DNA of 64,000 nt from Hyphomonas sp. (GTDB lineage Bacteria > Pseudomonadota > Alphaproteobacteria > Caulobacterales > Hyphomonadaceae), in NCBI RefSeq assembly GCF_022844445.1, contig NZ_JALHLS010000005.1, forward strand, positions 1 to 64,000, given 5' to 3'. Below are positions 30,165 to 47,183 of the stretch, piece after piece. The first letter of the stretch is position 1; every line of letters starts with the position of its first letter. A program made the translations under genes and the position numbers. The notes under the pieces were generated by a model that saw only the letters and a program-made list of their open reading frames with translations, was not told the DNA's origin and made no database searches.

Positions 30165-30205
30165 AATTGTCACAATGCGCGCATGACGGATTTGTGTCAA
30201 GGATA

Positions 30206-30262: not shown

Positions 30263-30280
30263 TTGTCATTCACCTGTCAC
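30263..30280 (+). promoter_or_regulatory. Candidate PhoB box upstream of the oxygenase gene
   Basis: TTGTCAT-TCAC-CTGTCAC has the 7-4-7 layout of a Pho box (two CTGTCAT-like heptamers 4 bp apart), with one mismatch in each half relative to CTGTCAT. It ends 36 bp before the oxygenase start at 30317, a normal distance for an activator site replacing the -35. A second such sequence precedes the elpS-like gene. A weaker minus-strand relative lies at 30183-30200. Confidence 0.55.
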
Positions 30281-31210: not shown

Positions 31211-31228
31211 TTGTCACGTAACCGTCAT
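31211..31228 (+). promoter_or_regulatory. Candidate PhoB box upstream of the elpS-like gene
   Basis: TTGTCAC-GTAA-CCGTCAT again shows the 7-4-7 spacing: two mismatches in the first half and one in the second against CTGTCAT. It lies in the 196 bp gap after the oxygenase gene and 130 bp before the lipoprotein ATG, leaving room for a leader. Phosphate control would match what is known of the Caulobacter elpS region. Confidence 0.55.
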
Positions 31229-31358
31229 CTAAACTTCCGGCAATTGTTGCAAAGCCTTCTTAAGGGTCACGCCTGCGGGTAGGCGGATCTCATCGTCTAG
31301 TGAGCGCGGCGGATGCCTCCGCCGGTGCACCCGCACAGGGATCACGACGGAGACACTC

Positions 31359-32915
31359 ATGCTGAAAATCAATTCACTTCGCACGGCGCTGCTTGGTTGC
31401 GCCGCTGTTGCGATCCTCGGCGCCTGCAGCGGCTCGGATGGCGTTGCCTCGCCTGGCGTAGGCGCGTTCGTGCCTGCACCTTCGACCCCGGCGCCCACCA
31501 CGCCCCCGCCGCCGACCGGCCCTGCCCCCGGCACGCCTGCCGCTGATTGCCCGGCCGGCTTCTCGAACGTCGGCACCGTCGCCAACCGCCGCATCTGCCA
31601 GCTGCCGTCGACCATCACCGGCAACCTCGTTGTTCCCAACCGCGCCGGCACCATCTATTCCGTCAGCGGCCGCACGCAGGTCGGAACCGACACCGGCTCG
31701 AACCCGGCCTCTCCCCTGCCCGGCCGCGCCGACGGCATTCTGACCATCGAACCTGGTGTCACGATCTTCGGAAACTCCGGTAACGACTATCTGCTCGTCA
31801 ACCGCGGCTCGCAGATCTTCGCCGAAGGCACCGCCTCTGCCCCGATTATCCTGACCTCCCGCCAGAGCGTTGAAGGCACCACTAACGAAAACTCGATCGG
31901 CCAATGGGGCGGTCTCGTCATCAACGGGCGCGCGCCGACGACAGACGGCTGCCCAGGCGTTATTACCCCGCCAAACATCGCCTGCGAAGCCCAGGTCGAA
32001 GGCTCAAACGCCTTCTACGGCGGCCTTTCGCCCGCCGACAACAGCGGCCGGCTCCGCTATGTCCGGGTTATGCATTCCGGCTTCACGATCTCGCTGAACA
32101 ACGAGCTGAACGGCATCACTCTCGCCGGCGTCGGTTCGGGCACAACGGTTGAGTTTGTCCAGGTCCACAACAGCTCGGACGACGGCATCGAGATCTTTGG
32201 CGGCAACGTCAACCTCCGCCGCATTGTCCTCTCTGGTAACGACGATGACTCGTTCGATACTGACTCCGGCTGGCGCGGCGCTGCCCAATTCGGCATTGTG
32301 TACCAGCGTACCGGTGGCGGCGATTTCGGCTTTGAAACGAGCTCGCGCGGCGTCAACACCGCCACGTTCTTCACCCGTCCGACTTATGCCAACTGGACGA
32401 TTGTTATGCGCGCGACCGCCGGCCGCGATGCGATCATCCACAATACTGGCCACGTTGGTCGCGTCTACAACTCGGTGCTCCGTTCCGAGATCAACCAGCA
32501 GTGCCTCAACCTCACCACGGCGGTCACCCTGACCAACCCGAATGGCGCCGGTGTCGGCACGGCCCCGAACGGCCCGCTGTACAACTCGGTCTTCTTCTCG
32601 TGCAATGGCGGCAATACCGAAGGCGCGAGCGGCATCACCACCCCGCAGGTGGACGCGCAGGTTGCCCTGGGCGCGAACAACGTGCTGAGCGGCACCTCGA
32701 CCCTGACCGGCGGCTTCATCAACGGCGCGAACGAAAACGCCGTCGTCCCGACCGCCTTCCCCGCGGCGCTGAACGGCACGGATCCGGCGCTGCCGGCCAA
32801 CACTGCAGTCACCGGCTTCCTGACCGCGGTGCCCTATATCGGCGCCGTGCAGAACGCCTCGGACACCTGGTATGCCGGCTGGACCTGCGGCATCCCCGGC
32901 CAGCCTGCCTGCTGA
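31359..32915 (+). CDS. elpS: ElpS-like surface lipoprotein
   Basis: 518 residues. Signal peptide with lipobox LGAC (Cys about residue 22), then a Pro/Thr/Ala-rich linker to about residue 65. The mature part is Asn/Gly/Ser/Thr-rich with repeated beta-helix-like rungs (ITLAGVGSGTTVEFVQVHN, DDGIEIFGGNVNLRRIVLSG), suggesting a right-handed parallel beta-helix. Four late Cys include TCGIPGQPAC at the end. Known from Caulobacter crescentus: ElpS is a phosphate-starvation lipoprotein encoded beside a 12-gene type II secretion cluster and released from the surface in a T2SS-dependent way. The same neighbourhood and a Pho-like box here support the assignment, but it rests on context and not alignment. 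Confidence 0.65.
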   Translation: MLKINSLRTALLGCAAVAILGACSGSDGVASPGVGAFVPAPSTPAPTTPPPPTGPAPGTPAADCPAGFSNVGTVANRRICQLPSTITGNLVVPNRAGTIYSVSGRTQVGTDTGSNPASPLPGRADGILTIEPGVTIFGNSGNDYLLVNRGSQIFAEGTASAPIILTSRQSVEGTTNENSIGQWGGLVINGRAPTTDGCPGVITPPNIACEAQVEGSNAFYGGLSPADNSGRLRYVRVMHSGFTISLNNELNGITLAGVGSGTTVEFVQVHNSSDDGIEIFGGNVNLRRIVLSGNDDDSFDTDSGWRGAAQFGIVYQRTGGGDFGFETSSRGVNTATFFTRPTYANWTIVMRATAGRDAIIHNTGHVGRVYNSVLRSEINQQCLNLTTAVTLTNPNGAGVGTAPNGPLYNSVFFSCNGGNTEGASGITTPQVDAQVALGANNVLSGTSTLTGGFINGANENAVVPTAFPAALNGTDPALPANTAVTGFLTAVPYIGAVQNASDTWYAGWTCGIPGQPAC

Positions 32916-32928
32916 GGCCATTGACAGA

Positions 32929-32964
32929 GCGGAGGCCCGGACGGGCCTCCGCTTCCTCCTTTTC
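32929..32964 (+). terminator. Hairpin terminator or attenuator between elpS-like gene and receptor gene
   Basis: GCGGAGGCCC (32929-32938), loop GGAC and GGGCCTCCGC (32943-32952) form a perfect 10 bp stem followed by TTCCTCCTTTTC. This is a rho-independent terminator shape placed between two genes that are otherwise 78 bp apart in the same orientation, so it may reduce read-through into the receptor gene. Confidence 0.7.
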
Positions 32965-32993
32965 ACGATGACTCCCTTCAGGAACTCAGTCCC

Positions 32994-35672
32994 ATGAAAT
33001 TCAACGCGCTGTCCCTCCGGGCCCTGTTGATCGCTTCGACAGCGATCCTCGTGCCCGCCTTCGCCTTCGCTCAGACCGAAACCGAGGCCGAAACAGAAAC
33101 CGAAACAGAGGCAGCGCCCGCTGCGGCAGAACCTGAGGCCGAAGAGGCTGAAGACTACCGGCTGAACGAAGTCGTGGTCCTCGGCCGCTACATCCCGGAA
33201 GTCCTGCGCAGCACATCGGAAGTTGCCGCATTCCTCGCCCCGGAAGACCTCATTCGCCAGGGTGATTCCGATGCTGCCAATGCGCTCGCCCGCGTGACCG
33301 GCCTCAGCATCGCCGAGGGCCGCTTCGTCTATGTGCGCGGCCTCGGCGAGCGCTACTCCGCTGCCCGGCTCAACGGCTCGCCGCTTCCGAGCCCCGAGCC
33401 GCTCCAGCGCGTGGTGCCGCTCGACCTCTTCCCCACGAAAATTCTCGAAAACGTGCTGGTCCAGAAAACCTACTCCGTTGAATATCCCGGCGAGTTCGGC
33501 GGCGGCATCATCGACCTGCGCACGCTGAACATTCCGGACGAACCCTTCTTCGAGCTCAGCGTCAGCGGCAGCTACAATTCCGAAACCACCGGCAAGGATG
33601 GTTTCACCTACTATGGGTCCGACACGGACGTTCTCGGTTTCGATGACGGCACGCGTAAGATTCCCGGCGCGGTCCGACAGGCCATGTCGACCGGCCGCCG
33701 CATCCAGAACGGCAGCTTTACGGCCGCAGAGCTGCAGGCGATCGGCCAGTCTTTCACCAACGCCGAGGTGAACCTTGTCCAGACCAATGACGGCCTTCCG
33801 ATGAACGGCAGTTACGAAGCGTCAGGCGGCACCTCCTTCGATATCGGCGGCATGGAACTCGGTGTGATCGGCGTGCTGGGCTACAGCAATGGCTGGCGCA
33901 CCAAGGATGGCCGCCAGGAAGTCGGCGAGATCAATGGCGGCAACCTGCAGGCGACCTCAACCTACGACTATCTTTCGACGGATCAGAACATCGGCTGGGA
34001 CGCGCTGTTCGGCATCGGTCTCGACGCAGGTGACGACAAGATCGACTGGACCAACCTCTACATTCGCAAGACTACCAAGCAGACGTTCGTGCGGGAAGGC
34101 TTTGACGACCTCGCGCTGCGCGATGTCCGGGATGATCGCACGGCCTGGTATGAACGAGAGCTCTACAGCACCCAGCTCAATGGCCGCCACTTCCGCGGCG
34201 ACTGGACGTTCGACTGGCGCACCGCCCTCTCGCAGACGAAACGTGACGCGCCCTACGAGCGCGAAGTGCGTTACATATTCGACCCGCTGGTCAACAATTT
34301 CATCTACAATCCAGCCGGATCCGGCTCGAGCAACAACATTGCCTTCTCCTTCATTGACGACCAGGTGGTCAGTGCCGGGGCGGACGTGCAGTACACGCAG
34401 GCGCTTTCTTCCGCACGCAGCATCGACTACTCGGTCGGCCTTGAAGGCTATGAGAACGACCGCAGCGCCCAGACGCGCAATTTCGGCTTCATTCCCACCA
34501 ATCCGCCGCTCAACTTCCTTTTGACACAGCAGCGCGTGGACTTCCTGTTCTCCAACTTCAATATTGGCCCTAACGGCTTCGAAATCCGCGAAACGACCGG
34601 CGCCTCCGGTGCTGCGGCTTTCGATGCAGACCTCAAGGTTTTCGCTGCCTATGCGAAAGTCGATGCGGAACTTATTCCGCTTGTGCGGACTGCATTCGGC
34701 CTGCGTTACGAGAACGCCGTCCAGTCGGTCACGCCGCTGTCGCTGATCTCTTCAGAAGCCGATCTGGCGCCGGTTCCGGGTGTGAAGAACAACTATATCC
34801 TGCCCGCGGGCACGTTGACCTGGAACTTCGCGGAAGACCAGCAGCTGCGTCTCGGTGCCTCGCAGAGTATAGGCCGCCCGCAGTTTCGCGAGCTTGCTCC
34901 GCAGCAGTATTTCGACCCGGATTCGAGCCGCATCTTCATCGGCAACCCCTACCTGACCGATACAGAGATCCTGAACCTCGACGCCCGGTACGAATACTAC
35001 TTCGACCGCGGCCAGACCCTGTCATTCGGCGTGTTCTACAAGGACCTCGACCGCCCGGTGGAATCGGTCGTCGTGACGCAGAGCGCCTCGGTCTTCCAGA
35101 CTTATCTCAACGCGCCGCGCGCAATCCTTTATGGGGCCGAAGCAGAGTTCAAACGCGTATTCGACAGCCCGTTCGAGGCTGCATTCCTGCGCGACAAGGA
35201 ATTCCTCGTGCAGGCGAACTACACCTACTCGAGCTCAGAAGTTAAGGCCGGAAGCGGCGATGTCGTCTTCCCGCTCCAGTCGGGCGGCCTGGCAAGGCCG
35301 GCGACCGACTTCGTCACGGATGGCTCGCGCCTGCAGGGTCAGTCTGAACACCTCGCCAACCTCCAGCTCGGCTATCAGGATGATGTGGCCCGCTCGCAGG
35401 CCACGCTGCTGGCAACCTATGCCAGCGAGCGCACCTCGGCCCGCGCCCCGGCCGGACAGCCTGACTTCGTGCAGGAGCCGGGTATCAATCTCGACTTCGT
35501 GTTCAAGAAAGGCTTCGACCTCCGCGGCCGCGAATTCACCCTGGACTTCAAAGTCCAGAACATTCTCGGCGAGGACTTCGACGAGTTCCAGTCAGGCTCG
35601 AACGGCTTTGTCCAGGTCAACCAGTACGAGCTCGGCACGACCCTCTCGCTTGGTCTTAGCACCGAGTTCTGA
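32994..35672 (+). CDS. TonB-dependent outer membrane receptor
   Basis: 892 residues. Signal peptide cleaved near AFAQ (about residue 27), then an unusual acidic Thr/Glu repeat tract (about 28-55), a TonB-box-like LNEVVVLG segment (about 60-67), a plug domain with VYVRGLGERYSAARLNGSPLP split over residues 108-130, and a 22-strand-type barrel ending in LSLGLSTEF with terminal Phe. Imports a large substrate with energy from TonB-ExbBD. Pairing with a surface lipoprotein recalls SusCD-like or substrate-capture partners. Phosphate-ester or peptide uptake is possible in this context, but not shown. Followed by the gsp operon. Confidence 0.92.
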   Translation: MKFNALSLRALLIASTAILVPAFAFAQTETEAETETETEAAPAAAEPEAEEAEDYRLNEVVVLGRYIPEVLRSTSEVAAFLAPEDLIRQGDSDAANALARVTGLSIAEGRFVYVRGLGERYSAARLNGSPLPSPEPLQRVVPLDLFPTKILENVLVQKTYSVEYPGEFGGGIIDLRTLNIPDEPFFELSVSGSYNSETTGKDGFTYYGSDTDVLGFDDGTRKIPGAVRQAMSTGRRIQNGSFTAAELQAIGQSFTNAEVNLVQTNDGLPMNGSYEASGGTSFDIGGMELGVIGVLGYSNGWRTKDGRQEVGEINGGNLQATSTYDYLSTDQNIGWDALFGIGLDAGDDKIDWTNLYIRKTTKQTFVREGFDDLALRDVRDDRTAWYERELYSTQLNGRHFRGDWTFDWRTALSQTKRDAPYEREVRYIFDPLVNNFIYNPAGSGSSNNIAFSFIDDQVVSAGADVQYTQALSSARSIDYSVGLEGYENDRSAQTRNFGFIPTNPPLNFLLTQQRVDFLFSNFNIGPNGFEIRETTGASGAAAFDADLKVFAAYAKVDAELIPLVRTAFGLRYENAVQSVTPLSLISSEADLAPVPGVKNNYILPAGTLTWNFAEDQQLRLGASQSIGRPQFRELAPQQYFDPDSSRIFIGNPYLTDTEILNLDARYEYYFDRGQTLSFGVFYKDLDRPVESVVVTQSASVFQTYLNAPRAILYGAEAEFKRVFDSPFEAAFLRDKEFLVQANYTYSSSEVKAGSGDVVFPLQSGGLARPATDFVTDGSRLQGQSEHLANLQLGYQDDVARSQATLLATYASERTSARAPAGQPDFVQEPGINLDFVFKKGFDLRGREFTLDFKVQNILGEDFDEFQSGSNGFVQVNQYELGTTLSLGLSTEF

Positions 35673-35683
35673 TCCTCGGGTCG

Positions 35684-35715
35684 GGCAGGTCGTTGCGAAA
35701 TTGCAACGGCCTGCC
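35684..35715 (+). terminator. Strong hairpin after the receptor gene
   Basis: GGCAGGTCGTTGC (35684-35696), loop GAAATT and GCAACGGCCTGCC (35703-35715) form a 13 bp stem with one T-G wobble, 11 bp after the receptor stop. No T-run follows on the plus strand, so it could be a terminator of weak type or an mRNA-stabilising structure separating the receptor from gspC. Confidence 0.55.
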
Positions 35716-35801
35716 GCCTGAAGAAAAATTGGACGCGAACCGTCGCGGAAGTGTCGCACAAGTGTGATTAGCCTGCAGGGGCTGAACCTAGGGGTCTTCG
35801 G

Positions 35802-36671
35802 ATGGCGGCGCTTTTCAGAATGGAAAGAGGCATCACTGGCACGGGCGTTGAAACGGCCGGACGCGTCGCGGTAGAGTCGCTTCTTGTGGTGACCCTCGGC
35901 GTCCTGTTCGGGCGCCTTGCCTGGACTGCCCTGGCGCCTTCGGATTCGTCTCTTTCCTCCACGTCCGCATCTTCCATAGCCTCGGGCATGAGCCTTTCGG
36001 ATACGCGCGAAGAGACCGCCATGATCCTTACCCGGATCAACCCGTTTGCGTCGCAGGAAGCGGCCGCCGGCGCTGCTTCTGGCTCTGAAACCACGCTCGA
36101 CCTCAAACTCTCCGGCGTGCGCGCCGTCGAGGGCAACACGACCGCAAGCAGCGCCGTGATCTCCTTCCCGGACGGCGCGCAGAAGCGCTTTGTGCCCGGC
36201 GATGAAGTGATGCCCGGCGTCGTGCTTGTGAACGTCACCGGCGCGGCAGCACATCTCAGCCGGGACGGCCGGCTCGAAATCCTCAGCCTCAATCCCGGAC
36301 GAACCGCGCCGTTCGCGGTGCCCGCCGAGCCGCCTGTAGCGGGCACGCTCGTGATGGCTGCAGCCAGCACACCCGAGGCTGGCCCCATTACGCCGACTGC
36401 GCTCGCCGACGATACCGTGATGATGCCGGAAATGCGCAGTGGACGGGTGTCCGGTTACCGTCTCGAGCCGCGCGGCGCCGGCGCCTTCGAGGCCGCCGGT
36501 CTGGAATCGGGCGATCTCATCCTGCGCGTCAACGGCCAGGCCATCGAAGGCCTGCAGCCCGAGCAGATCCACCAGTCCGTCGCCAGCGGCTCCGATGTCG
36601 CGCTCGACGTGGTTCGCCAGGGTGCAATCGTGCGCCTGCGCGTCTCGCCCAACGCGGGCCTTTCCCAATGA
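35802..36671 (+). CDS. gspC: Type II secretion system protein GspC
   Basis: 289 residues. One N-terminal membrane helix (about 28-45), a periplasmic homology region (about 95-170) that contacts the secretin, and a C-terminal PDZ domain (about 215-289) with GYRLEPRG, GLESGDLILRVNGQAIEGL and VRLRVSP. Connects the inner membrane platform to GspD and helps select cargo. First gene of the gsp operon; its stop overlaps the gspD ATG by 4 bp. Confidence 0.9.
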   Translation: MAALFRMERGITGTGVETAGRVAVESLLVVTLGVLFGRLAWTALAPSDSSLSSTSASSIASGMSLSDTREETAMILTRINPFASQEAAAGAASGSETTLDLKLSGVRAVEGNTTASSAVISFPDGAQKRFVPGDEVMPGVVLVNVTGAAAHLSRDGRLEILSLNPGRTAPFAVPAEPPVAGTLVMAAASTPEAGPITPTALADDTVMMPEMRSGRVSGYRLEPRGAGAFEAAGLESGDLILRVNGQAIEGLQPEQIHQSVASGSDVALDVVRQGAIVRLRVSPNAGLSQ

Positions 36672-38638: not shown

Positions 38639-38642
38639 CAGC

Positions 38643-40124
38643 ATGCGCACGCAGGTGAATTACGCCTTCGCCCGGGACAAAGGCCTTGCCGTGATCCCCG
38701 GACGCACGCCATTGACGGTCGCCATGCGTGACGGCGCCGATGTACTGGCGCTTGCCGAAGTGCGCCGGGTGCTGGGATCCTCATTCGATATCGAGGCACA
38801 TTCGGCCATTGCGTTTGAACGTCTCCTCTCCGAAGGCTTCGGCGGCGGCGCACTGGACGGCACGGCCGCAGCGGCCGCCGAAAAGCAGGAGAACCTGGAG
38901 ACGCTGTTCGACGGCCTGCCGCAGACGGAAGACCTGCTCGCGGGCGATGGAGATGCTCCAATCGTGCGGCTGATCAACGGCCTTCTTCAGGACGCCATCA
39001 AGCGCCGGGCCTCGGATATTCACATCGATCCGTTCGAAGAGAAGCTTTCCATCCGTTACCGGATTGATGGCGAGCTGCAGGAAGTGCTCGCCGCCTCGCG
39101 CCGAATTGCGGCGCCGCTGGTCTCACGCATCAAGGTGATGAGCCGGCTCGACATCTCGGAAAAGCGCATGCCGCAGGATGGCCGGGTCTCACTGTCGCTC
39201 GGCGGGCGCGCGCTGGACGTGCGCGTTGCCACCCTGCCAACGCGTTACGGCGAGCGCGTGGCGCTGCGCATCCTCGACACACGCCAGGCCCTGGTCGGCC
39301 TCGACGGGCTCGGCATGGACGACGCGACGCTGGACCGGTTCCGTTCGGTCATCGCCGAGCCGAACGGCGTAATCCTCGTCACCGGCCCGACAGGCTCAGG
39401 CAAGACGACGACCCTGTATTCTGCCCTCGCCATGCTGAACACGGGCCGCGTCAACATCATGACGCTGGAAGACCCGGTCGAGTACGGTCTCGACGGGATC
39501 AGCCAGACGCCGATGGACCACAAGGTCGGCCTGACCTTCGCGGCCACATTGCGCTCCATCCTGCGCAATGATCCGAACATCGTGATGGTCGGCGAGATCC
39601 GCGATGCGGAAACGGCGGAAGTCGCGCTAGAGTTTGCTCTGACTGGCCGCCTCGCCCTCTCCACGGTTCACACCAACAGCTCCGCCGGTGCGATCACGCG
39701 CCTGCGCGACATGGGCATCGAAAGCTTCCTGCTCGCCTCGACGCTGCGCGCAGTCCTGGCGCAGCGCCTGGTGCGGCGCCTCTGCCCGAAATGCAAGACA
39801 TCCTACCGGCCAGAGGCCGCGCTGATCGAGAAACTTGGGCTGCCTGCGGATCATTCCGGTCTGTTCTGCGGACCGGCCGGCTGTGATGCCTGCCGGGGCA
39901 CCGGCTATGCCGGCCGCCTTGGCGTGTATGAGCTGCTTCTGATCACGCCCGAGATCAAGCGCCTGATCCACGACGCAGCGAGCGAAGAAGCGATCGAGCG
40001 CGTCGCTTTCGCCTCAGCCGACATGCTGTTCCGGAATGGCCTGCGCCATGTGCTGAGCGGCGAGACGAGCGCGGAAGAGCTGCTGCATGTCTGCCGCAGG
40101 GAGGCATGGAATGGCAGCGTATGA
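38643..40124 (+). CDS. gspE: Type II secretion system ATPase GspE
   Basis: 493 residues from the ATG at 38643, 4 bp after gspD. Cytoplasmic motor for pseudopilus assembly. RASDIHIDPFE marks the N2 domain, Walker A GPTGSGKTTT lies at about 248-257, the Asp box follows in LEDPVEY, Walker B is MVGEIRDAETA, and a zinc site is given by CPKC and CDAC about 40 residues apart near residue 385-425. All catalytic parts are present. Overlaps the gspF start by 14 bp. Confidence 0.96.
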   Translation: MRTQVNYAFARDKGLAVIPGRTPLTVAMRDGADVLALAEVRRVLGSSFDIEAHSAIAFERLLSEGFGGGALDGTAAAAAEKQENLETLFDGLPQTEDLLAGDGDAPIVRLINGLLQDAIKRRASDIHIDPFEEKLSIRYRIDGELQEVLAASRRIAAPLVSRIKVMSRLDISEKRMPQDGRVSLSLGGRALDVRVATLPTRYGERVALRILDTRQALVGLDGLGMDDATLDRFRSVIAEPNGVILVTGPTGSGKTTTLYSALAMLNTGRVNIMTLEDPVEYGLDGISQTPMDHKVGLTFAATLRSILRNDPNIVMVGEIRDAETAEVALEFALTGRLALSTVHTNSSAGAITRLRDMGIESFLLASTLRAVLAQRLVRRLCPKCKTSYRPEAALIEKLGLPADHSGLFCGPAGCDACRGTGYAGRLGVYELLLITPEIKRLIHDAASEEAIERVAFASADMLFRNGLRHVLSGETSAEELLHVCRREAWNGSV

Positions 40125-41322
40125 TTATAAGGCGCTGACGGCGGATGGCGAGCGCACCTCCGGTGTGATTTCGGCCGACAATCCCCGCGCGGCCCGCCGC
40201 GAGCTGCGCGCCCGCCAGCTGATGCCGGTCGAGGTGGCCGAAGCGGGCACGGCAAAGGCAGGCAGCAAGCGCCTGCGCGGGCGCCTGTCGCACAAGCAGC
40301 GCACGCTGTTCACGCGCCAGATGGCCGTGTTGCTGCAATCGGGCATGACGGTCGAGCAGGCGCTGACCGCTGCCGCCGCGGATGGAAGCGCCGCGTCCGT
40401 GCGGGCACTGATCCTCGGCGTGCGATCGCAGGTCATGGAAGGGGTTCCGCTGGCAGATTCCCTGCGCGCCGCGCCGCTCGCCTTCCCGCCGCTTTATCGC
40501 TCGGTCGTCGCGGCCGGGGAATCTGCAGGCCGCCTGCCCGCAGTCCTCGATCAGCTCGCAACCAACCTCGAGCGCACCTACAAGATGGCCTCTCAGGCCC
40601 GCGCCGCGCTGGTCTATCCGGCCGTTCTCGGCGCCATGGCGCTGCTGATGGTTGCTGCGCTCATGGTCTTCGTCGTGCCGAAACTGGTCGACCAGTTCGC
40701 GATGCTCGGCACGTCCGAACTCCCCTTGCTCACCCGCCTCGTCATCGGCGCCTCGGACCTTGCCCGCAGCTGGGGCTGGCTGCTTGCCGGCGCCCTGGTC
40801 GCGGCCAGCGCGCTGTTCGCCCGGCTGCTCGCCGCGCCCGCTTTCCGCAAGCGCTGGGACGCCTTGATCCTCGGCCTACCCTTCGTCGGCCCGATGATCC
40901 GCACCCTCTGCGCGGCGCAGTTTGCCCGCGTTCACGCCACGCTCGCCGGCTCCGGCGCGACCGTGATCGAAGCGCTGGCCGCCGCACGCGGCGCGATGGG
41001 CAACACGGTATTCCGCGACGCCGCCACGTCGATCATCGAGCAGGTCCAGCAGGGCGCCCCGCTGTCGGCCTCGATGCGCAAGACCGGCGTCTTTCCGCCC
41101 ATCCTGACCCATATGGTCCAAAGCGGAGAGGCCGCGCGCGACGTGCCGGCCATGATGAACCGCGGCGCTGATTTCCTCGAAAGCGAGTTCGAGGCAACCA
41201 CGCGCACCCTGCTGAGCCTGCTTGAGCCAGCCATCATCATCATCCTCGGCGGTATTGTCGGCACGATCGTGCTGTCGATCATGCTGCCCATCATGCAACT
41301 TAACACCCTTGCCCTCGGCTGA
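40111..41322 (+). CDS. gspF: Type II secretion system inner membrane protein GspF
   Basis: 403 residues from the ATG at 40111, preceded by GGGAGG. Two repeated GspF domains (about 70-195 and 270-400), each with the KQRTLFTRQMAVLLQSGM-type or ILTHMVQSGEA-type helices, and three membrane segments (about 170-195, 215-240, 375-400). It anchors GspE and the pseudopilus base. The gspE stop falls inside the gspF start region. Confidence 0.95.
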   Translation: MAAYDYKALTADGERTSGVISADNPRAARRELRARQLMPVEVAEAGTAKAGSKRLRGRLSHKQRTLFTRQMAVLLQSGMTVEQALTAAAADGSAASVRALILGVRSQVMEGVPLADSLRAAPLAFPPLYRSVVAAGESAGRLPAVLDQLATNLERTYKMASQARAALVYPAVLGAMALLMVAALMVFVVPKLVDQFAMLGTSELPLLTRLVIGASDLARSWGWLLAGALVAASALFARLLAAPAFRKRWDALILGLPFVGPMIRTLCAAQFARVHATLAGSGATVIEALAAARGAMGNTVFRDAATSIIEQVQQGAPLSASMRKTGVFPPILTHMVQSGEAARDVPAMMNRGADFLESEFEATTRTLLSLLEPAIIIILGGIVGTIVLSIMLPIMQLNTLALG

Positions 41323-41333
41323 CGGAGGAAACC

Positions 41334-41792
41334 ATGCCCCATCCCAACCCGTTCAAAGGACGCAGATCGCGCGCTCAACAGGCCGGCTTCTCGCTTGTGG
41401 AACTGATGGTCGTCGTCTTCATCATGGGCCTGCTGGCGACGCTGATCATCGTCAACGTGGCTCCGGTGGGCGACCGCTCGCGCATCTCGAAGGCCCGCTC
41501 CGACATAGCAAGCCTCGAAAGCGCGCTCGAGCAGTACAGCCTTGACCTCTACAACTACCCCAGCAGCGACCAGGGCCTGGCCGCGCTCTCTGCACCGCCG
41601 CAAGGCGTCGACCTCGCACTCTACCGGCAAGGCGGCTACATCCGCCGGGTACAGATGGACCCGTGGGGCAAGCCCTACCAGTACCAGATCCCGGGCACGC
41701 GTTCCGGCGGCCGGTATGACATCTTCTCCCTCGGCGCTGACGGCCAGCCGGGCGGCGAAGGCCCGGACGCCGATATCGGCAACTGGGACTGA
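41334..41792 (+). CDS. gspG: Type II secretion major pseudopilin GspG
   Basis: 152 residues. The prepilin peptidase site is QQAG/FSLVELMVV, with Glu at mature +5, followed by a hydrophobic helix. The C-terminal part has the calcium-loop segments YPSSDQGLAAL, WGKPYQYQIPG and YDIFSLGADGQPGGEG, all typical of GspG. Builds the pseudopilus that pushes cargo through the secretin. The maturing peptidase GspO/PilD is not encoded in the window. Confidence 0.96.
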   Translation: MPHPNPFKGRRSRAQQAGFSLVELMVVVFIMGLLATLIIVNVAPVGDRSRISKARSDIASLESALEQYSLDLYNYPSSDQGLAALSAPPQGVDLALYRQGGYIRRVQMDPWGKPYQYQIPGTRSGGRYDIFSLGADGQPGGEGPDADIGNWD

Positions 41793-41799
41793 TCCCGCC

Positions 41800-42300
41800 A
41801 TGCGCGCCGCCGCGACAGCCGTGCTCACCTGCCGGACGCCAACAGGCGCGCCGGCGCAGGCCGGGTTTTCGCTGACGGAAGTTCTCGTGACCCTGTCGAT
41901 CATCGCGTTCACTTCCGCGATGATCATCGGCACAAGCCGGCCTGCCGATCCGCTGAAGCAGGAAGGCGAGCGGCTTGCGCAGACACTGGCGCAGCTGGAA
42001 AACCGCGCCCGCATATCGGGCGAACCGATGGGCATGGTGCTTGAGCCCGGCGCCTATTCGGCTGCAGCCTGGGTGGACAGTGAATGGATCGTCCTTCCGC
42101 GCTCAGCGCGCACGCTGCCCGCCGGAATTGTGGTCCAGTCGCCCGCCCCGATGCCGCGCGACCCGTCGCCAGCGGCAGACCAGTCACTGCGTCCGCAGAT
42201 CATGTTCGATCCGCTTGGCCATTCCGGGCCGGTTGAGATCGAATTGCGCGCCGGGACCCGTACGCTGATGGTGCCCCCGCCGGAGGCAGGCCGCCGGTGA
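41800..42300 (+). CDS. gspH: Type II secretion minor pseudopilin GspH
   Basis: 166 residues from the ATG at 41800, 7 bp after gspG. A long leader of about 21 residues ends at PAQAG/FSLTEVLVTLS with Glu +5. The C-terminal part is beta-rich with GEPMGMVLEPG and IMFDPLGHSGPVEIEL, as in GspH. Helps start pseudopilus assembly. Its final GTGA overlaps the gspI start. Confidence 0.88.
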   Translation: MRAAATAVLTCRTPTGAPAQAGFSLTEVLVTLSIIAFTSAMIIGTSRPADPLKQEGERLAQTLAQLENRARISGEPMGMVLEPGAYSAAAWVDSEWIVLPRSARTLPAGIVVQSPAPMPRDPSPAADQSLRPQIMFDPLGHSGPVEIELRAGTRTLMVPPPEAGRR

Positions 42301-42665
42301 AAGCGCAGGGCTTCTCCCTCCTCGAGACCATGGTTGCGCTTGCGGTGTTCTCCGTCGCGGCGATGGGGCTTGTCTCGCTCAACACGCAGTCCGCGCGCAT
42401 CAGCGGCGAACTCGATACACGGCTTCTGGCCCGCACGGTCGCGGAGAATCTTGCCGTCGACACCGTGACCGCCGAAACGCTGGACCTGAGCCCGGTCACT
42501 GAGGGCGAAGCCATCCAGCGCGGGCGCGCCTATGCCTGGACGCGCACGCTGGAGCCAACGCCGCAGCCGGGTCTCTACAGTGTACGGATTGACGTGCGCG
42601 AGGCCGGGGAGACGCCGGTCCTCGCCCGCCTTTCTCTGCTGGCTTCTGAGAGCGCCGCGCCATGA
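42297..42665 (+). CDS. gspI: Type II secretion minor pseudopilin GspI
   Basis: 122 residues. Starts at GTG inside GTGA shared with the gspH stop. A very short leader MKAQG precedes FSLLETMVALAVFS with Glu +5. The mid part WTRTLEPTPQPGLYSVRIDV is of the GspI type. Forms the GspI-J-K tip complex of the pseudopilus. Overlaps gspJ by 4 bp. Confidence 0.9.
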   Translation: MKAQGFSLLETMVALAVFSVAAMGLVSLNTQSARISGELDTRLLARTVAENLAVDTVTAETLDLSPVTEGEAIQRGRAYAWTRTLEPTPQPGLYSVRIDVREAGETPVLARLSLLASESAAP

Positions 42666-43279
42666 CCGCGCCCCACGCCTCCGAAAGCGGCATGACGCTG
42701 ATCGAAACGCTGATCGCGCTCTTTACGATCGCGCTGATGGCCTCTGCCGGCGCGGTGATGACGGGCCAGACACTGCGCGGCGCGCGCATGGTGGAGACAC
42801 GCGGCGCCGAGTCCGGGGCGCTCGCCGTCGCCCTCAACACGCTTTCAGCCGACCTCGCCGCCTATACCGGCCGGCTCAGCCAGGATGCCGTCTTGTCCGA
42901 ACCCGCGACCGCCTTCGCCGGCCATGCGCCGCGCGCAGATGGCCGTTTGATGGTTTTCGTGCGCAATGGCTGGGCCAACCCGTCCGGCGCCGTGCGAAGC
43001 GATTTGCAGCGCGTCGAGTACCGCGTCGAGAACGGTGCCCTGATCCGCCGGTCATGGCTCGCCCCTGATCCCGGCCCGGCAACGCCGGTTGTCGATGAAA
43101 CACTCCTCTCCGGCCTCGCCGGTCTCGAGGCCCGCTTCGGTCAGGCAGACACCTGGCGCAGTGAATGGCTGGCCGATGGCGGGGAGGTGGCCCCCGCGCC
43201 GCAGAAGGTCGAGCTGACGCTGGCCTTCGCCGAGGGCGACGTGCTGACGGTCCGTTACCTTATCGGAGCGGGCTCATGA
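42662..43279 (+). CDS. gspJ: Type II secretion minor pseudopilin GspJ
   Basis: 205 residues. Leader MTAPHASESG, then MTLIETLIALFTIALMAS: mature residue +1 would be Met in place of the more common Phe, with Glu +5 kept. The C-terminal part has FVRNGWANPSG and LQRVEYRVENGALIRRSW, which are characteristic of GspJ. Start and stop each overlap the neighbouring genes by 4 bp. Confidence 0.92.
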   Translation: MTAPHASESGMTLIETLIALFTIALMASAGAVMTGQTLRGARMVETRGAESGALAVALNTLSADLAAYTGRLSQDAVLSEPATAFAGHAPRADGRLMVFVRNGWANPSGAVRSDLQRVEYRVENGALIRRSWLAPDPGPATPVVDETLLSGLAGLEARFGQADTWRSEWLADGGEVAPAPQKVELTLAFAEGDVLTVRYLIGAGS

Positions 43280-44250
43280 TAACACCAGGCAAAGAGGCCG
43301 GCGCTGCACTTCTGTCGATCCTTCTGATAGTCGCCACACTGTCCGTCGCGGCGGTGATGGCGACGGGTGTCATCGCGCGCCAGACGGAGCTGCAGAAGCT
43401 CAGTGTACGGCGCACGCATGCCCTCTGGGCAGCGCGCTCCGCCGAGTCGGTCGCGCTCGCCTCCGCCGCAGACCTCTTTGCGGCGAGCCGCCTGCCCGCA
43501 TCGGACACCGGCGAAGACCCGTCGCGCACGCTCGCCCTGCCGCTCGACGGCGGACAGATTGTGCTGACACTCTCGGCTCAGGCGCCCTGCTTCAATCTCA
43601 ACTCCCTAGGCAACCCGGACCCCGCGCTCCGCGCGCAGCATATGCAGAATTTCGAAATCCTCCTGGCGGATATCGGCTTGCCGGGCGGCGACGCGGCCCG
43701 CGTCTCGGCTACCCTTGCCGACTGGATCGATGCTGATCCCGCGCCGCTGCCGCTCGGCGGCGAGGACGCTGCCTATCTCGGACAGGACAGCGGCTTCCGC
43801 GCCGCCAGCCAGCCGCTCCTCAGCCCGGCCGAACTCGCCGTCCTGCCCGGCTTCACGCCGGACCTGCGCCGCGCGCTCTCGGCTTTCACCTGTACTCTCG
43901 ACAGCCCGGACGCCGCGCGGCTCAACATGAACGCGCTGACCGCCGACTCCGCGCCGGTCCTGCGCGCCGCCACCGGCGGCCGCCTCTCCCTTGCCGAGGC
44001 GCGCCGCCTCATCGAGGCCCGACCCGTCTCCGGCTGGCCGGATGTCCAGGCCGTGCGCACCGCGGCGGATCGCCTGCCAGGCGCCGGCGAAGCGCTTGCC
44101 GGCCTGCCGCTTGAGGTCCGCAGCGAACATTTCACCGGTACCGGCACCGTGAACCTTGATACAGGCAGCTGGCCGTTCCGCTTCATCCTGCGTGCCGGCG
44201 ACGGGGCCGCGCCCGAGATCATCTGGCGCCGTTTCGGAGGCGCCGCATGA
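43276..44250 (+). CDS. gspK: Type II secretion minor pseudopilin GspK
   Basis: 324 residues from the ATG at 43276. Leader MITPGKEAG, then AALLSILLIVATLSVAAV without Glu at +5, as expected for GspK, the pseudopilus tip. The large periplasmic domain has CFNLNSLGNPD and LADWIDADP plus helix-hairpin-like LSLAEARRLIEARP and GWPDVQAV, all family features. Overlaps gspJ and gspL by 4 bp each. Confidence 0.93.
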   Translation: MITPGKEAGAALLSILLIVATLSVAAVMATGVIARQTELQKLSVRRTHALWAARSAESVALASAADLFAASRLPASDTGEDPSRTLALPLDGGQIVLTLSAQAPCFNLNSLGNPDPALRAQHMQNFEILLADIGLPGGDAARVSATLADWIDADPAPLPLGGEDAAYLGQDSGFRAASQPLLSPAELAVLPGFTPDLRRALSAFTCTLDSPDAARLNMNALTADSAPVLRAATGGRLSLAEARRLIEARPVSGWPDVQAVRTAADRLPGAGEALAGLPLEVRSEHFTGTGTVNLDTGSWPFRFILRAGDGAAPEIIWRRFGGAA

Positions 44251-45362
44251 ACGCCGACATCTATATCGAATTGCCTGCCAGCACTGGCGCGCCCTTTCGC
44301 CTCGCCGTTCGCCGGGGAAATACTCTGCATCCGGAGGATTTTTCAACCTTCAAGGCATCCGGTCGCCCGAAAGCCGTCGCCTTCGCGCCGGCCCTCAGCG
44401 TTGCGAAGTTCCGGATCCCGGTGGCCGCGAAGTCGGAATCAGAGGCGCGCAGGGCGGCGCTGTATGCCATCGAAGACGACCTCGCCCAATCGGTCGATGA
44501 CGTGCACCTGCTGCTCGCACCAAAACAGGCCGGCACCCGCACGCGCGACGTCTACGTTGCCGACAAGGCCCTGCTGCAACACTGGACTACGCGGCTGCAG
44601 TCTGCTGGCCTTGGCTATGCGGAGATCGTTCCGGAAGCCAGCCTTGCCCTGGCCCCAGGTGCGCTGTTCGACTTTGGCGACCGGCTTCTGATGCATGGGC
44701 GGGACGGCATCCTCGGCGCAGACCGGACCTGGCCAGAAGACGTGCTGCTGGAAATCCTGCGCAAGGCGGGGCTCAGCGACGCCAATGTCACATCCGCCAA
44801 TGCGCTCGAAACGCTTGCTGCACTCGAGGCCCGCGCGCCCGGCGTCCGGTTGACGGAGACACGCGGCGCAGGCGCTGCGCGGGAAGGCAGTGCCTTTCGC
44901 CGTTGGCGCCTCGCCGGGATGCTGGTCCTCGCGGCCACCGCCATCTGGATCGCCGGCATCCAGTTCGAAATCAACAGCCTGCTGACGACCGCACGCAAGC
45001 AGGAAGCCGACGCCCGCGCCGCCTATCGCCAGCAATTCGCCGGTGCGCCGGAGCCGGTCGACATAGACGCTGAAGTCCGTCGCCTCTCCGCGGCCACCTC
45101 CGCCGAGCCCGCAGGCAATTTCCTCGGCCTCTCGGCGGCTGTCTATGAGGCTCTCGCCTTGCAGCCGGGCGCGCAGCTGCGCCAACTTCAGTATACGCAG
45201 TCAGACGCCTCCCTGCGCGCGGTTCTCCGCTTTGCCGCCGCGCCCGAAGCTGAAGCCTACCGCGCCGCTCTGGAAGCCTCCGGCTGGAGCGCGCAGACCG
45301 AGAGCCTGACGGACCTTGCTCCGGGCACTGAGGCGGCCTTCATCCTGAGGGCTGCACCATGA
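44247..45362 (+). CDS. gspL: Type II secretion system protein GspL
   Basis: 371 residues. The cytoplasmic N-terminal part (to about 220) has the actin-like fold segments of GspL that bind GspE (KFRIPVAAKSESEARRAALY region). One membrane helix lies at about 228-246 (MLVLAATAIWIAGIQFEI), followed by a periplasmic ferredoxin-like domain that pairs with GspM. Overlaps gspK and gspM starts by 4 bp. Confidence 0.88.
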   Translation: MNADIYIELPASTGAPFRLAVRRGNTLHPEDFSTFKASGRPKAVAFAPALSVAKFRIPVAAKSESEARRAALYAIEDDLAQSVDDVHLLLAPKQAGTRTRDVYVADKALLQHWTTRLQSAGLGYAEIVPEASLALAPGALFDFGDRLLMHGRDGILGADRTWPEDVLLEILRKAGLSDANVTSANALETLAALEARAPGVRLTETRGAGAAREGSAFRRWRLAGMLVLAATAIWIAGIQFEINSLLTTARKQEADARAAYRQQFAGAPEPVDIDAEVRRLSAATSAEPAGNFLGLSAAVYEALALQPGAQLRQLQYTQSDASLRAVLRFAAAPEAEAYRAALEASGWSAQTESLTDLAPGTEAAFILRAAP

Positions 45363-45817
45363 TGTCCTGGTGGTCCGCCCGCGCCCCGCGCGAACGACTG
45401 TTGCTCGGCGCGGCTGTCGTTGTCGCCCTGCTCGCCGCGCTGGTGCAGCTTGTCCTCGTCCCGGCCATTCAGCGCCGCGCCGAAGCGGAAACCCGTGTCG
45501 CCGAAGCGGCCAGCACGCTGCTGCGCCTCGAACGTCTGCGCGCCGCCGGCATCACCGAGGCCGCGGTCACGCCCCCGGCAGACCCCGCCGCGGCCGCCTC
45601 CGCCCTTGCCGCCGAAGCGGGCCTCATGATTTCTCCATCGGCGTCCGGCGCAGCGCTCAGCTTCGTTTTCGCCTCCGCGGATCCTCAACAGGTTTTCGGC
45701 TGGATCGCGCAGGTGGAGGCGCGCCTCGGCCTGAAGGTCCAGTCCGCCGAACTCTCCGCCGCAGAGCCGGGCCGTGTGAACGCCGCCATCACGTTCTCAA
45801 GGGCGGGCACACCATGA
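45359..45817 (+). CDS. gspM: Type II secretion system protein GspM
   Basis: 152 residues. A short basic N-terminus (WWSARAPRERLLLG), one membrane helix (about 15-36), then an Ala/Glu-rich helix and a small ferredoxin-like domain. This shape and place directly after gspL identify it as GspM, the GspL partner in the inner membrane platform. Sequence alone would be weak evidence, since GspM is poorly conserved. Confidence 0.85.
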   Translation: MMSWWSARAPRERLLLGAAVVVALLAALVQLVLVPAIQRRAEAETRVAEAASTLLRLERLRAAGITEAAVTPPADPAAAASALAAEAGLMISPSASGAALSFVFASADPQQVFGWIAQVEARLGLKVQSAELSAAEPGRVNAAITFSRAGTP

Positions 45818-46572
45818 AACGGCTGATTTTCTTTGCCTTGCTCGCCGCAGGCTTCGTCGGCGGCCTGATCGTCTTCGCCCCGCTGAGCGCCGCGCTTACG
45901 GCATCCGGCGCCGGCGCGCGCGGCCTCGGCTGGTCCAGCGCCGAAGGCACCGTCCTGTCCGGTACGGTGCGCGGCCTGACACTGGACGCAAAGCCCTATG
46001 GCAATGCGGAGCTGGACTTCTCGCCCGGCGGCCTCCTGTCTGCGAACCTTCAGTATACGGTCGATTGGGCCGGGCCGCAGGGCAGCGGCCAGGGCAAGGT
46101 CGCGCTCGGCCCCGGCGGCCACATCTCGCTGCGCGACTACACGCTCAGTCTCGATCTCGGCCAGCTCGACCAGGCTGCCCTCTGGATCCGCCAGTCCGGC
46201 GGCCGGGTAGACCTTACCGGCGCCGCGCTCCGCTTCGGCCCCGCTGGCTGCGTCACCGCCGAAGGCATGGCCCGCAGCGATGTCCTGGAGCGCAACCGCG
46301 AGATACTCGGGCCAGGCTGGGCGCCGATGCAGGGCGCACTGCGCTGCGAAGATGGCACGCTGGTCATCCCGCTGTCCTCAGAAAACCAGACCGGCACGCG
46401 CTTTGAGGCTGACCTTCGCCTCTCCCCGGACGAGCCCGGCCGGTTTGAAGCGCGCGTCTCCGGCATCGTCCCGCGCGAGCTGGCCTTCGCCCTGCCCATT
46501 GCCGGCTTTGCGCTGCAGGGGCAGGACTATGTTTATCTCTTCCAGACCTCCGACACGAGCGCCCCCCAATGA
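45814..46572 (+). CDS. gspN: Type II secretion system protein GspN
   Basis: 252 residues from the ATG at 45814, overlapping the gspM stop. One N-terminal membrane helix (about 5-25) precedes a periplasmic beta-rich region with repeated LTLDAKPYGNAELDFSPGG-like strands and two Cys (GPAGCV and ALRCEDG) that may form a disulfide. GspN is an accessory part found in some T2SS, including that of Caulobacter. The stop overlaps the next lipoprotein start. Confidence 0.85.
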   Translation: MKRLIFFALLAAGFVGGLIVFAPLSAALTASGAGARGLGWSSAEGTVLSGTVRGLTLDAKPYGNAELDFSPGGLLSANLQYTVDWAGPQGSGQGKVALGPGGHISLRDYTLSLDLGQLDQAALWIRQSGGRVDLTGAALRFGPAGCVTAEGMARSDVLERNREILGPGWAPMQGALRCEDGTLVIPLSSENQTGTRFEADLRLSPDEPGRFEARVSGIVPRELAFALPIAGFALQGQDYVYLFQTSDTSAPQ

Positions 46573-47054
46573 TGAGACCTGCCCTCCTCGCCGTCCTGAT
46601 CGCCGTCCTCCCGGCCTGCAGCCATGACCCCAAGCCAGAGGCCTCTCAGGCGCCCCGCAGCACGTCGCAGGCGATCGCGGCCGTCCCGGAAGCCGGCCTG
46701 CCGCCCCAACGCCTCGCGCCCGGAAAGTGCGGTCTGTTCCTGTGGGGCATGTCGGCCCCCCGCCAGTTCGTCCTGTTCGCAGAAAGCCCTGCCGCAAGCG
46801 CGCTGGTCCTGCTGGACGGCAAGCCGGTCTCCCTGCCGATGACCGGCGCTGGCGGCGAGGTCTTCGGCCAGTTCGTCACGGACATGAAATTCGAGGACGC
46901 CGCCTCCCGCACGCAGGTTCAGGTCACCCTCAAACCCGGCGACGCTCTCGAGGGCGGCCAGCGTGTCGACACCGGCAACATCCTGTTCCGGGACGCGGAA
47001 GGCTGGGAAACGATCCTGCCGGTTACCGGCGTGCGCGCCTGCATGCCCGGTTAG
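46569..47054 (+). CDS. Small lipoprotein closing the gsp operon
   Basis: 161 residues. Signal MMRPALLAVLIAVLPAC gives a lipobox LPAC (Cys at residue 17), followed by a Pro/Ala/Ser linker. The mature domain (about 55-161) is beta-rich, with PGKCGLFLWGM near its start and a last Cys in VRACMPG, so one disulfide is likely. The ATG overlaps the gspN stop by 4 bp. I recognise no family. It is not built like the helical pilotins GspS/AspS, but its place suggests a T2SS accessory lipoprotein. Confidence 0.75.
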   Translation: MMRPALLAVLIAVLPACSHDPKPEASQAPRSTSQAIAAVPEAGLPPQRLAPGKCGLFLWGMSAPRQFVLFAESPAASALVLLDGKPVSLPMTGAGGEVFGQFVTDMKFEDAASRTQVQVTLKPGDALEGGQRVDTGNILFRDAEGWETILPVTGVRACMPG

Positions 47055-47098: not shown

Positions 47099-47183
47099 TG
47101 GTGCGGTCAAGAGGACTCGAACCTCCACGGGTTGCCCCACAGCGACCTCAACGCTGCGCGTCTACCAATTCCGCCATGACCGC
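47099..47183 (-). tRNA. tRNA-Leu (anticodon GAG)
   Basis: Read on the minus strand, the acceptor arms GCGGTCA and TGACCGC pair over 7 bp. The anticodon arm CAGCG-TTGAGGT-CGCTG shows GAG (reads CUC/CUU codons). A long variable arm with GGG-CAA-CCC marks a class II tRNA such as Leu, and the T arm is GGAGG-TTCGAGT-CCTCT. A discriminator A is followed by an encoded CCA (47101-47099). Confidence 0.95.

What the first reader, a model, noticed from the sequence alone, without database searches (positions are those of the whole stretch)
31211..47054. Probable phosphate-starvation island: ElpS-like lipoprotein, TonB receptor and a 12-gene T2SS
The order lipoprotein, receptor, gspCDEFGHIJKLMN matches what is known of the Caulobacter elpS region, where a phosphate-starvation lipoprotein is released with help of the adjacent T2SS. 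Here Pho-like boxes stand before the lipoprotein gene and before the neighbouring oxygenase. The set could secrete phosphatases, trap products at the surface and import them.
Basis: partly seen in the sequence, partly recalled or inferred. Interest (0 to 1): 0.7.

Follow-up and report, generated by a model that had tools for sequence, protein, structure and literature searches.

The report
ElpS phosphate-starvation locus with T2SS
This stretch carries a known kind of bacterial gene set for coping with phosphate shortage (a surface lipoprotein, a partner outer-membrane receptor and a protein secretion machine), in which the lipoprotein-receptor pair appears to have been swapped between lineages in front of the resident machine and often sits beside an enzyme related to prolyl hydroxylases.

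Summary
The finding is real and its reading is largely right. Window 31359-32915 encodes a lipoprotein 37% identical (residues 11-510) to a Caulobacter-group protein that carries both published sequence marks of ElpS (LAGC lipobox at 17-20, Asn38). A TonB receptor and gspC-gspN follow, plus a 13th, lipoprotein gene. PhoB-type boxes stand before elpS, before the oxygenase and, weaker, before gspC. The same pattern in this genome also precedes pstC-, pstS- and phoX-like genes. The arrangement is published for Caulobacter, and the 2010 paper lists Hyphomonas neptunium, so it is a new member of a known kind. What I add: (1) ElpS and receptor trees conflict with GspD/GspE trees, so the pair was probably exchanged in front of a resident T2SS, in this genus and again in a Caulobacter lineage; (2) the oxygenase is prolyl-4-hydroxylase-like with its active-site residues kept, and it recurs beside this locus in Sphingomonads and Xanthomonads; (3) ElpS is predicted to be a beta-helix, and relatives are single or tandem-double. 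That the hydroxylase acts on the Pro-rich ElpS linker, where Caulobacter ElpS is cut, is my boldest reading; a phylogenetic test gives it no support. Expression, cargo and transport were not tested.

The parts
29388..30164 (-). Secreted CAP-domain protein gene, divergent from the oxygenase; start inferred at 30164 from the signal-like N-terminus
   Evidence: PF00188 1.2e-06; start; homologue beside the locus in the 8 same-genus single-type loci looked at (L069; L139-L145)
30263..30280 (+). PhoB-type box TTGTCATTCACCTGTCAC before the oxygenase gene
   Evidence: 0 mismatches to YTGTCAYN4YTGTCAY, one of 4 perfect hits in the genome; GTCAT and GTCA cores kept in the nine same-genus loci aligned
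30317..31162 (+). 2OG-Fe(II) oxygenase of the prolyl-4-hydroxylase type (281 aa)
   Evidence: PF13640; 8 of 9 PDB matches are named prolyl 4-hydroxylase or procollagen-proline dioxygenase, the ninth (3gze) 'Predicted protein'; best 5.3e-24; H175, D177, H247, K257 kept in homologues
31211..31228 (+). PhoB-type box TTGTCACGTAACCGTCAT before elpS, followed by CTAAACTT
   Evidence: 1 mismatch; GTCAT core of the second half-site and CTAAACTT kept in 9 of 9 same-genus loci, first half-site degenerate in 5 of 9
31359..32915 (+). elpS: lipoprotein with Pro-rich linker and predicted beta-helix domain
32927..32954 (+). Terminator-like hairpin between elpS and the receptor gene
   Evidence: 12-pair stem, z -4.2; stem of 7 or more in this gap in 106 of 108 loci; controls
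32994..35672 (+). TonB-dependent receptor
   Evidence: PF07715, PF00593; TIGR01782 below cut-off; next to elpS in 78 of 80 named loci
35688..35711 (+). Inverted repeat after the receptor gene
   Evidence: sequence; stem of 9 or more after the receptor gene in 87 of 105 loci
35741..35769 (+). Weak 11-bp-phased Pho-like block before gspC
   Evidence: conserved in the nine same-genus loci aligned; coordinates; not a hit of the strict pattern
35802..36671 (+). gspC
   Evidence: PF11356
36668..38638 (+). gspD secretin
   Evidence: PF00263, PF03958, PF21305
38643..40124 (+). gspE ATPase (start inferred)
   Evidence: PF00437; alternative start
40111..41322 (+). gspF (start inferred)
   Evidence: PF00482
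41334..41792 (+). gspG
   Evidence: PF08334
41800..42300 (+). gspH (start inferred)
   Evidence: TIGR01708 9.7e-13, under its curated cut-off; PF07963
42297..42665 (+). gspI
   Evidence: PF02501
42662..43279 (+). gspJ
   Evidence: PF11612
43276..44250 (+). gspK (start inferred)
   Evidence: PF21687, PF03934
44247..45362 (+). gspL
   Evidence: PF05134, PF12693
45359..45817 (+). gspM
   Evidence: PF04612
45814..46572 (+). gspN (start inferred)
   Evidence: PF01203 on the longer frame
46569..47054 (+). 13th gene: small lipoprotein (LPAC lipobox) overlapping gspN by 4 bases
   Evidence: homologue found in 7 of 10 downstream regions of relatives searched

Best explanation
This is an ElpS-type phosphate-scavenging locus. 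Under phosphate shortage PhoB binds the boxes and strongly transcribes elpS, and probably the oxygenase gene and the T2SS operon. A hairpin after elpS limits read-through, so more lipoprotein than receptor would be made. ElpS is exported, lipidated at Cys23 and displayed on the outer membrane. Its predicted beta-helix, with an invariant acidic patch (D274, D275, E278, D296, D300, D302), binds or processes an organic phosphorus ligand and hands it to the neighbouring TonB receptor, a lipoprotein-receptor division of labour like SusD-SusC but with unrelated lipoproteins. The T2SS, which looks like the only one in this genome, secretes phosphatases and a protease that frees ElpS by cutting in the linker. 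The elpS-receptor pair is an exchangeable cassette: it has been replaced in front of a vertically inherited T2SS. Shown here: gene content, ElpS homology, boxes shared with Pi genes, tree conflict, predicted fold. Shown elsewhere for Caulobacter: low-phosphate induction, surface display, T2SS-dependent release, probable cleavage before Asn38. Inferred: ligand, hand-over to the receptor, cargo of this T2SS, expression in this organism, direction of the swap.
For: Homology and published ElpS marks. Order and neighbours: receptor next to elpS in 78 of 80 named loci, T2SS genes within reach in 50 of 80. Boxes before pstC-, pstS-, phoX-like genes. Boxes before elpS across loci: score 11 or more in 45 of 94, against 1.6% of random segments. 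Controls on the same 94 regions: 13 for the motif read backwards, 11 on the opposite strand, 3-10 for wrong spacings, 47 for spacing 22, two periods. PhoB regulon of Caulobacter includes the T2SS (PMC11208175 passages). Flavobacterium ElpS relatives, some next to Pi-induced receptors, with polygalacturonase-like models (PMC8115612 passages). Model pLDDT 84, pTM 0.85; most of the 50 PDB matches shown are proteins that I know as beta-helices, none at E 0.001 or better. Tree conflict. Only T2SS: of the other two secretins, that on C4 lies with CpaB- and TadA-type genes; that on C13 lies near a second prepilin peptidase gene, taken as Tad by inference.
Against: No expression data for this organism. 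49 of 94 elpS upstream regions lack a box of score 11 or more, and in 5 of 9 same-genus loci the first half-site is degenerate. One of the four perfect boxes of the genome lies inside a carboxyl-transferase gene, so the pattern also hits by chance. The phoX box lies only a few bases before a possible start codon. In Caulobacter cc0171 was constitutive and the T2SS was first reported constitutive, against the 2024 placing of the T2SS in the PhoB regulon. 16 of 58 named loci with 9 kb or more downstream show no T2SS gene in reach, so the T2SS is not an obligate part. The acidic patch is sequence conservation only; no match implies catalysis.
Confidence: 0.85

Rival explanations
1. ElpS is itself a T2SS cargo: a beta-helix enzyme (polygalacturonase- or lyase-like, or a phosphoesterase) that the T2SS moves to the surface, and the receptor takes up the oligomers it makes.
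For: Many of the structure matches shown are beta-helix carbohydrate enzymes and tailspikes; T2SS genes in reach in 50 of 80 named loci; invariant acid cluster.
Against: Best PDB match E 5e-3, TM-scores up to 0.35 in the 50 rows shown. In Caulobacter ElpS reaches the surface without the T2SS (PMC2996285). ElpS-receptor pairs occur with no T2SS gene in reach, e.g. Idiomarina L121, L127.
Confidence: 0.2
2. The set is iron- or glycan-related and the boxes are incidental: a TonB receptor with lipoprotein and a 2OG oxygenase, as in iron-uptake loci.
For: 2OG oxygenases are often neighbours of TonB receptors (recalled); TIGR01782, a broad receptor subfamily, matches below its cut-off.
Against: Box enrichment in phase and orientation, shared with pst and phoX genes; Caulobacter elpS did not respond to iron (PMC2996285 passage).
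Confidence: 0.06
3. The tree conflict reflects ancient paralogous elpS-receptor pairs with differential loss, not cassette exchange.
For: Single and tandem forms coexist in one genus; deep branches.
Against: Among the matches in the 24 same-genus genomes sampled, no genome shows both a single and a tandem form; the ElpS and receptor trees agree in their three main groups; a second case in the Caulobacter-group loci L227 and L232.
Confidence: 0.2

Closest known systems
Caulobacter crescentus elpS (cc0170) - cc0171 - gspC-N region (PMC2996285)
   Same: Gene order, lipoprotein family, receptor, 12 gsp genes; one good half-site (CTGTCAC or GTGTCAC) before elpS in the six Caulobacter-group loci looked at
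   Different: Oxygenase and CAP genes upstream here, no homologue found in the 20 kb of L227 and 19 kb of L232; gspO not in the cluster here; different elpS-receptor clade. The 13th gene was not found in 3 Caulobacter-group regions, but gspN was not found there by the same search either, so that absence says little.
Xanthomonas xcs T2SS cluster (PMC2585010 passages)
   Same: 12-gene xcsC-N with a receptor and hypothetical genes upstream; more like Caulobacter T2SS than xps; lipoprotein and oxygenase homologues present (L065, L105)
   Different: Oxygenase divergent and only about 35% identical; the paper's passages give no role for xcs
Flavobacterium johnsoniae PUSIII/PUSIV lipoproteins FI, FII with TonB transporters (PMC8115612 passages)
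   Same: Low-Pi-induced ElpS relatives in clusters with TonB transporters; polygalacturonase-like models
   Different: No T2SS mentioned in the passages read; 31-36% identity over 50-54% coverage to Caulobacter ElpS
Bacterial prolyl 4-hydroxylases (PDB 3itq, 5hv0, 5iax; Bacillus anthracis by recall)
   Same: Domain and active-site residues
   Different: About 90 N-terminal residues outside the match; substrate unknown

Membership tests
ElpS lipoprotein family | Sequence homology to Caulobacter ElpS over the mature protein | tested here: met
   37% identity, residues 11-510, E 2e-92 to L174.
ElpS lipoprotein family | Lipobox and no inner-membrane retention Asp at +2 | tested here: met
   LGAC then Ser
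ElpS lipoprotein family | Adjacent TonB receptor and T2SS | tested here: met
ElpS lipoprotein family | Induction by phosphate starvation | not testable with these tools
   Only boxes were found
ElpS lipoprotein family | Surface display and T2SS-dependent release | not testable with these tools
   Known for Caulobacter (PMC2996285)
PhoB regulon | Tandem 7-mers in 11-bp phase upstream, shared with pst genes of the same genome | tested here: met
PhoB regulon | PhoB binding or PhoB-dependent expression | not testable with these tools
   none here
Type II secretion system | Core genes C-N and a prepilin peptidase in the genome | tested here: met
   (gspH under its cut-off); peptidase candidates C2:463-783 and C13:77275
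Type II secretion system | Secretion activity and cargo | not testable with these tools
   none
Prolyl 4-hydroxylase | HxD...H iron triad and 2-oxoglutarate lysine in the P4H domain (roles recalled) | tested here: met
   32 homologues aligned (window included): first His and Asp in 31 of the 31 with letters there, second His and Lys in 32 of 32; alignment to solved enzymes
Prolyl 4-hydroxylase | Hydroxylates prolyl residues | not testable with these tools
   none
SusCD-type pair | SusD-family lipoprotein | tested here: not met
   ElpS has no Pfam match up to E 10; predicted beta-helix. It may work like SusCD; it is not a member.

The most novel reading that the evidence does not exclude
The linked prolyl-4-hydroxylase-like enzyme is phosphate-starvation-controlled and hydroxylates the Pro-rich linker between the lipid anchor and the beta-helix of ElpS before export. 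That would set the stiffness, glycosylation or protease cleavage of the very stretch in which Caulobacter ElpS is cut, so an oxygen- and 2-oxoglutarate-dependent enzyme would decide whether the lipoprotein stays on the cell or is released.
Probability: 0.1. Interest if true: 0.75.

Novelty: new member of a known kind. Interest (0 to 1): 0.42.

Why it matters
It confirms by sequence that the Caulobacter ElpS arrangement extends to this lineage with its PhoB boxes. The tree conflict marks the lipoprotein-receptor pair as the functional unit and the T2SS as a separable partner, which tells experimenters which genes to delete together. The recurrent prolyl-hydroxylase-type neighbour gives a testable lead for a substrate of a bacterial prolyl hydroxylase.

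Tried and rejected
Hydroxylase-linker link: all 29 single-form loci with a linked oxygenase have a Pro-rich linker (fraction 0.2 or more), against 23 of 33 without (Fisher 0.001; L092 and rows without a readable linker left out; one of the 29, L095, has only a short piece of the oxygenase). The independent-pairs test gives no support (p 1; 62 rows, 28 with oxygenase, 7 changes of linkage but only 3 of linker type). Pro-rich tandem ElpS of G040 and G046, and Pro-rich single ElpS of G042 and G010, have no oxygenase match anywhere in the genome. Oxygenase homologues of 46-60% identity also exist in genomes G002, G008, G012, G019, G023, G025, G029 and G033; in the stretches fetched around those of G002, G008 and G012 no ElpS was found. 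So it stays a lead.

Hairpin after elpS as a special device: hairpins are nearly as common after the receptor gene (z of -3 or lower in 74 of 108 after elpS, 63 of 105 after the receptor gene, 3 of 108 inside it), so they are probably ordinary terminators or attenuators. None of 200 dinucleotide shuffles folded as well as the window's stretch; my own shuffles move blocks of two bases only. The terminator scan as a whole found no excess (5 found, 4.8 expected). I did not run a pair-by-pair covariation count on alignment A3, because its gaps put the loops out of register.

Box controls: one permuted-motif control reached 39 of 94 (mean of 60 permutations 2.8); permutations were random, so near-copies of the motif may be included. 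Random background segments include coding DNA.

Structure without an alignment was useless (pLDDT 35): a wasted job. For ElpS, PDB by sequence (E up to 1), Pfam (up to 10) and PHROGs (up to 1) found nothing; a profile found one chain at E 3.9, taken as chance. The BFVD search gave only weak matches. AU tests were run on groups that I named after seeing identities; trees are 'quick' ones. Paper searches. One search (prolyl 4-hydroxylase, type II secretion, TonB-dependent, lipoprotein) found no paper with all four terms; that is the whole basis for not having found the oxygenase link in print.


Full report
WHAT IS THERE. The finding's stretch holds a 518-aa lipoprotein gene (31359-32915), a TonB receptor gene (32994-35672) and gspC to gspN (35802-46572), followed by a 161-aa lipoprotein gene that overlaps gspN by 4 bases (46569-47054). 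Families; translations. gspH is the weakest call (NCBIfam 9.7e-13, under its curated cut-off). Starts of gspE, F, H, K and N were set by me from the reading frames and family matches. Upstream lie a 2OG-Fe(II) oxygenase gene (30317-31162) and, divergent from it, a secreted CAP-domain protein gene (29388-30164). A tRNA-Leu lies at 47099-47183. A prepilin peptidase is not in the cluster; the genome's two matches are at C2:463-783 and C13:77275. Of the genome's three secretins, the one on C4 lies with CpaB- and TadA-type genes and the one on C13 lies about 2 kb from a prepilin peptidase gene, which I take to be Tad too. So this looks like the only T2SS of the genome.

IS IT ELPS. Of the 2010 paper I saw the outline and abstract, the discussion and passages. 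It gives checkable facts: LAGC at 17-20, probable cleavage before Asn38, and a secreted protein of about 50 kDa. The window protein is 37% identical to it over residues 11-510. The same paper states that the arrangement also occurs in Xanthomonas campestris, Sphingomonas alaskensis and Hyphomonas neptunium. I take the window's organism to be Hyphomonadaceae-like from its relatives; no name is given. One same-genus contig (G032:C7, 138263 bases) matches in length a record titled Candidatus Sulfopaludibacter (L069); that title looks wrong.

PHO BOXES. The pattern YTGTCAYN4YTGTCAY with at most one mismatch has 15 hits in 3.73 Mb and 7 for the pattern read backwards. Three lie in 1073 bp of this locus (simulated chance 1.2e-4). 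Four others stand at genes of phosphate or outer-membrane uptake: a pstC-like gene (C18), a PstS-like binding protein gene (C13:41138), a PhoX gene (C2; the box is a few bases before a possible start) and an OMP_b-brl_4/CarboxypepD_reg outer-membrane protein gene (C13:53636). Of the other 8, 6 lie inside reading frames, among them one perfect hit inside a carboxyl-transferase gene, and 2 in gaps beside genes without an evident phosphate role. Across 94 of 101 loci with usable upstream DNA, a box of score 11 or more precedes elpS in 45; random segments reach that in 1.6%. In the same 94 regions the motif read backwards gives 13, the opposite strand 11, wrong spacings (7-10, 12-16) 3 to 10, while spacing 22, two periods, gives 47: phase and orientation are as expected for PhoB. 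In nine same-genus loci the GTCAT core of the second half-site and CTAAACTT are invariant, while the first half-site is degenerate in five. Before gspC a block of three 11-bp-phased near-repeats is the best conserved part of an otherwise diverged spacer in the same nine. That fits the report that the T2SS belongs to the Caulobacter PhoB regulon (PMC11208175, passages), although the 2010 paper called T2SS expression constitutive.

RELATIVES. The receptor gene is next to elpS in 78; the two exceptions are a contig end (L124) and a locus where my reading frame stopped early but the receptor still follows (L065). T2SS genes are in reach in 50 of 80, and in 42 of the 58 that have 9 kb or more downstream. 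Idiomarina loci L121 and L127 have the pair without T2SS genes in reach. In the window's family 72 of 81 genomes have an elpS match.

TWO ARCHITECTURES AND A SWAP. ElpS is either single (about 500 aa) or a tandem double (about 940 aa). Of the 24 same-genus genomes sampled nine have the single form; 14 of the other 15 show two matches in one frame and one (G005) is a fragment at a contig end. Both forms stand next to receptor and T2SS genes. In the trees the window genus's GspD and GspE group with same-genus double-type loci and a few others (97*, 100*). Its ElpS and receptor instead group with Caulobacteraceae, Xanthomonad and other single forms. Forcing the Hyphomonas-like rows together is rejected for ElpS (AU p 1e-96) and the receptor (1.7e-4) (quick trees; groups chosen after seeing identities). 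The same genus carries at least two further elpS-receptor types, L152/L155 and L156-L158. In the Caulobacter-group loci L227 and L232, ElpS and receptor group with Sphingomonads (98*, 100*) but GspE with the Caulobacteraceae locus L230 (99*); the GspD tree was not drawn. So the pair seems to have moved as a unit, with a breakpoint between the receptor gene and gspC, at least twice. Terminator-like hairpins after elpS and after the receptor gene divide the locus at just these joints.

THE PROTEIN. No Pfam, NCBIfam, PHROGs or PDB sequence match worth the name. With 42 sequences the model reaches pLDDT 84 and pTM 0.85. Most of the 50 Foldseek matches shown are proteins that I know as beta-helices (tailspikes, pectate lyases, polygalacturonases, chondroitinase B), none significant (best E 5e-3). 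The Flavobacterium paper reports polygalacturonase-like models for its ElpS relatives and lists IPR011050, recalled as the pectin-lyase fold, for FII (passages). Invariant residues cluster in DDGxE and DDSxDxD.

THE OXYGENASE. Of 9 PDB sequence matches 8 are named prolyl 4-hydroxylase or procollagen-proline dioxygenase; the ninth is called 'Predicted protein'. His, Asp, His and Lys of the active site (roles recalled) are kept: the first two in 31 of the 31 rows with letters there, the other two in 32 of 32. Linked copies occur in 21 of 80 named loci (one, L095, a short piece), mainly in three layouts: upstream on the same strand, upstream divergent (Xanthomonads), and between receptor and gspC on the other strand (Sphingomonads). 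In the window's genus it is present in 9 of 9 genomes with the single ElpS and in 0 of 15 others. That may simply mean that it travels with the cassette. The link to the Pro-rich linker is described under Tried and rejected: suggestive, not supported once relatedness is counted.

VERDICT. An ordinary and well-explained locus in its main lines, a new member of the ElpS-receptor-T2SS kind, with a modular history supported by trees and one unusual enzyme neighbour.

Noticed in passing
46569-47054: Small lipoprotein gene overlapping gspN by 4 bases; homologues in 7 of 10 downstream regions of relatives. In the three others, all of the Caulobacter group, gspN was not found by the same search either. 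Position and lipobox make it a pilotin-like candidate.
   Followed up: partly
29388-30164: Secreted CAP-domain protein gene divergent from the oxygenase gene, found in all 9 same-genus single-type loci looked at (window included); its first codons overlap a Pho-like box at 30156-30173.
   Followed up: partly
L214 (G000:C13:53636): A perfect Pho-type box stands before a gene for a CarboxypepD_reg/OMP_b-brl_4 outer-membrane protein, so this genome may have a second phosphate-controlled receptor.
   Followed up: no
47099-47183: tRNA-Leu (gag) on the minus strand between the T2SS operon and a LplA/B-type (lipB-like) gene.
   Followed up: no
   Followed up: partly
L087, L093, L094, L118, L154, L155, L231: T2SS genes (at least gspD and gspE) are inverted and upstream of elpS, so the T2SS block and the elpS-receptor block also rearrange relative to each other; in L231 gspK lies on the other side.
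   Followed up: no
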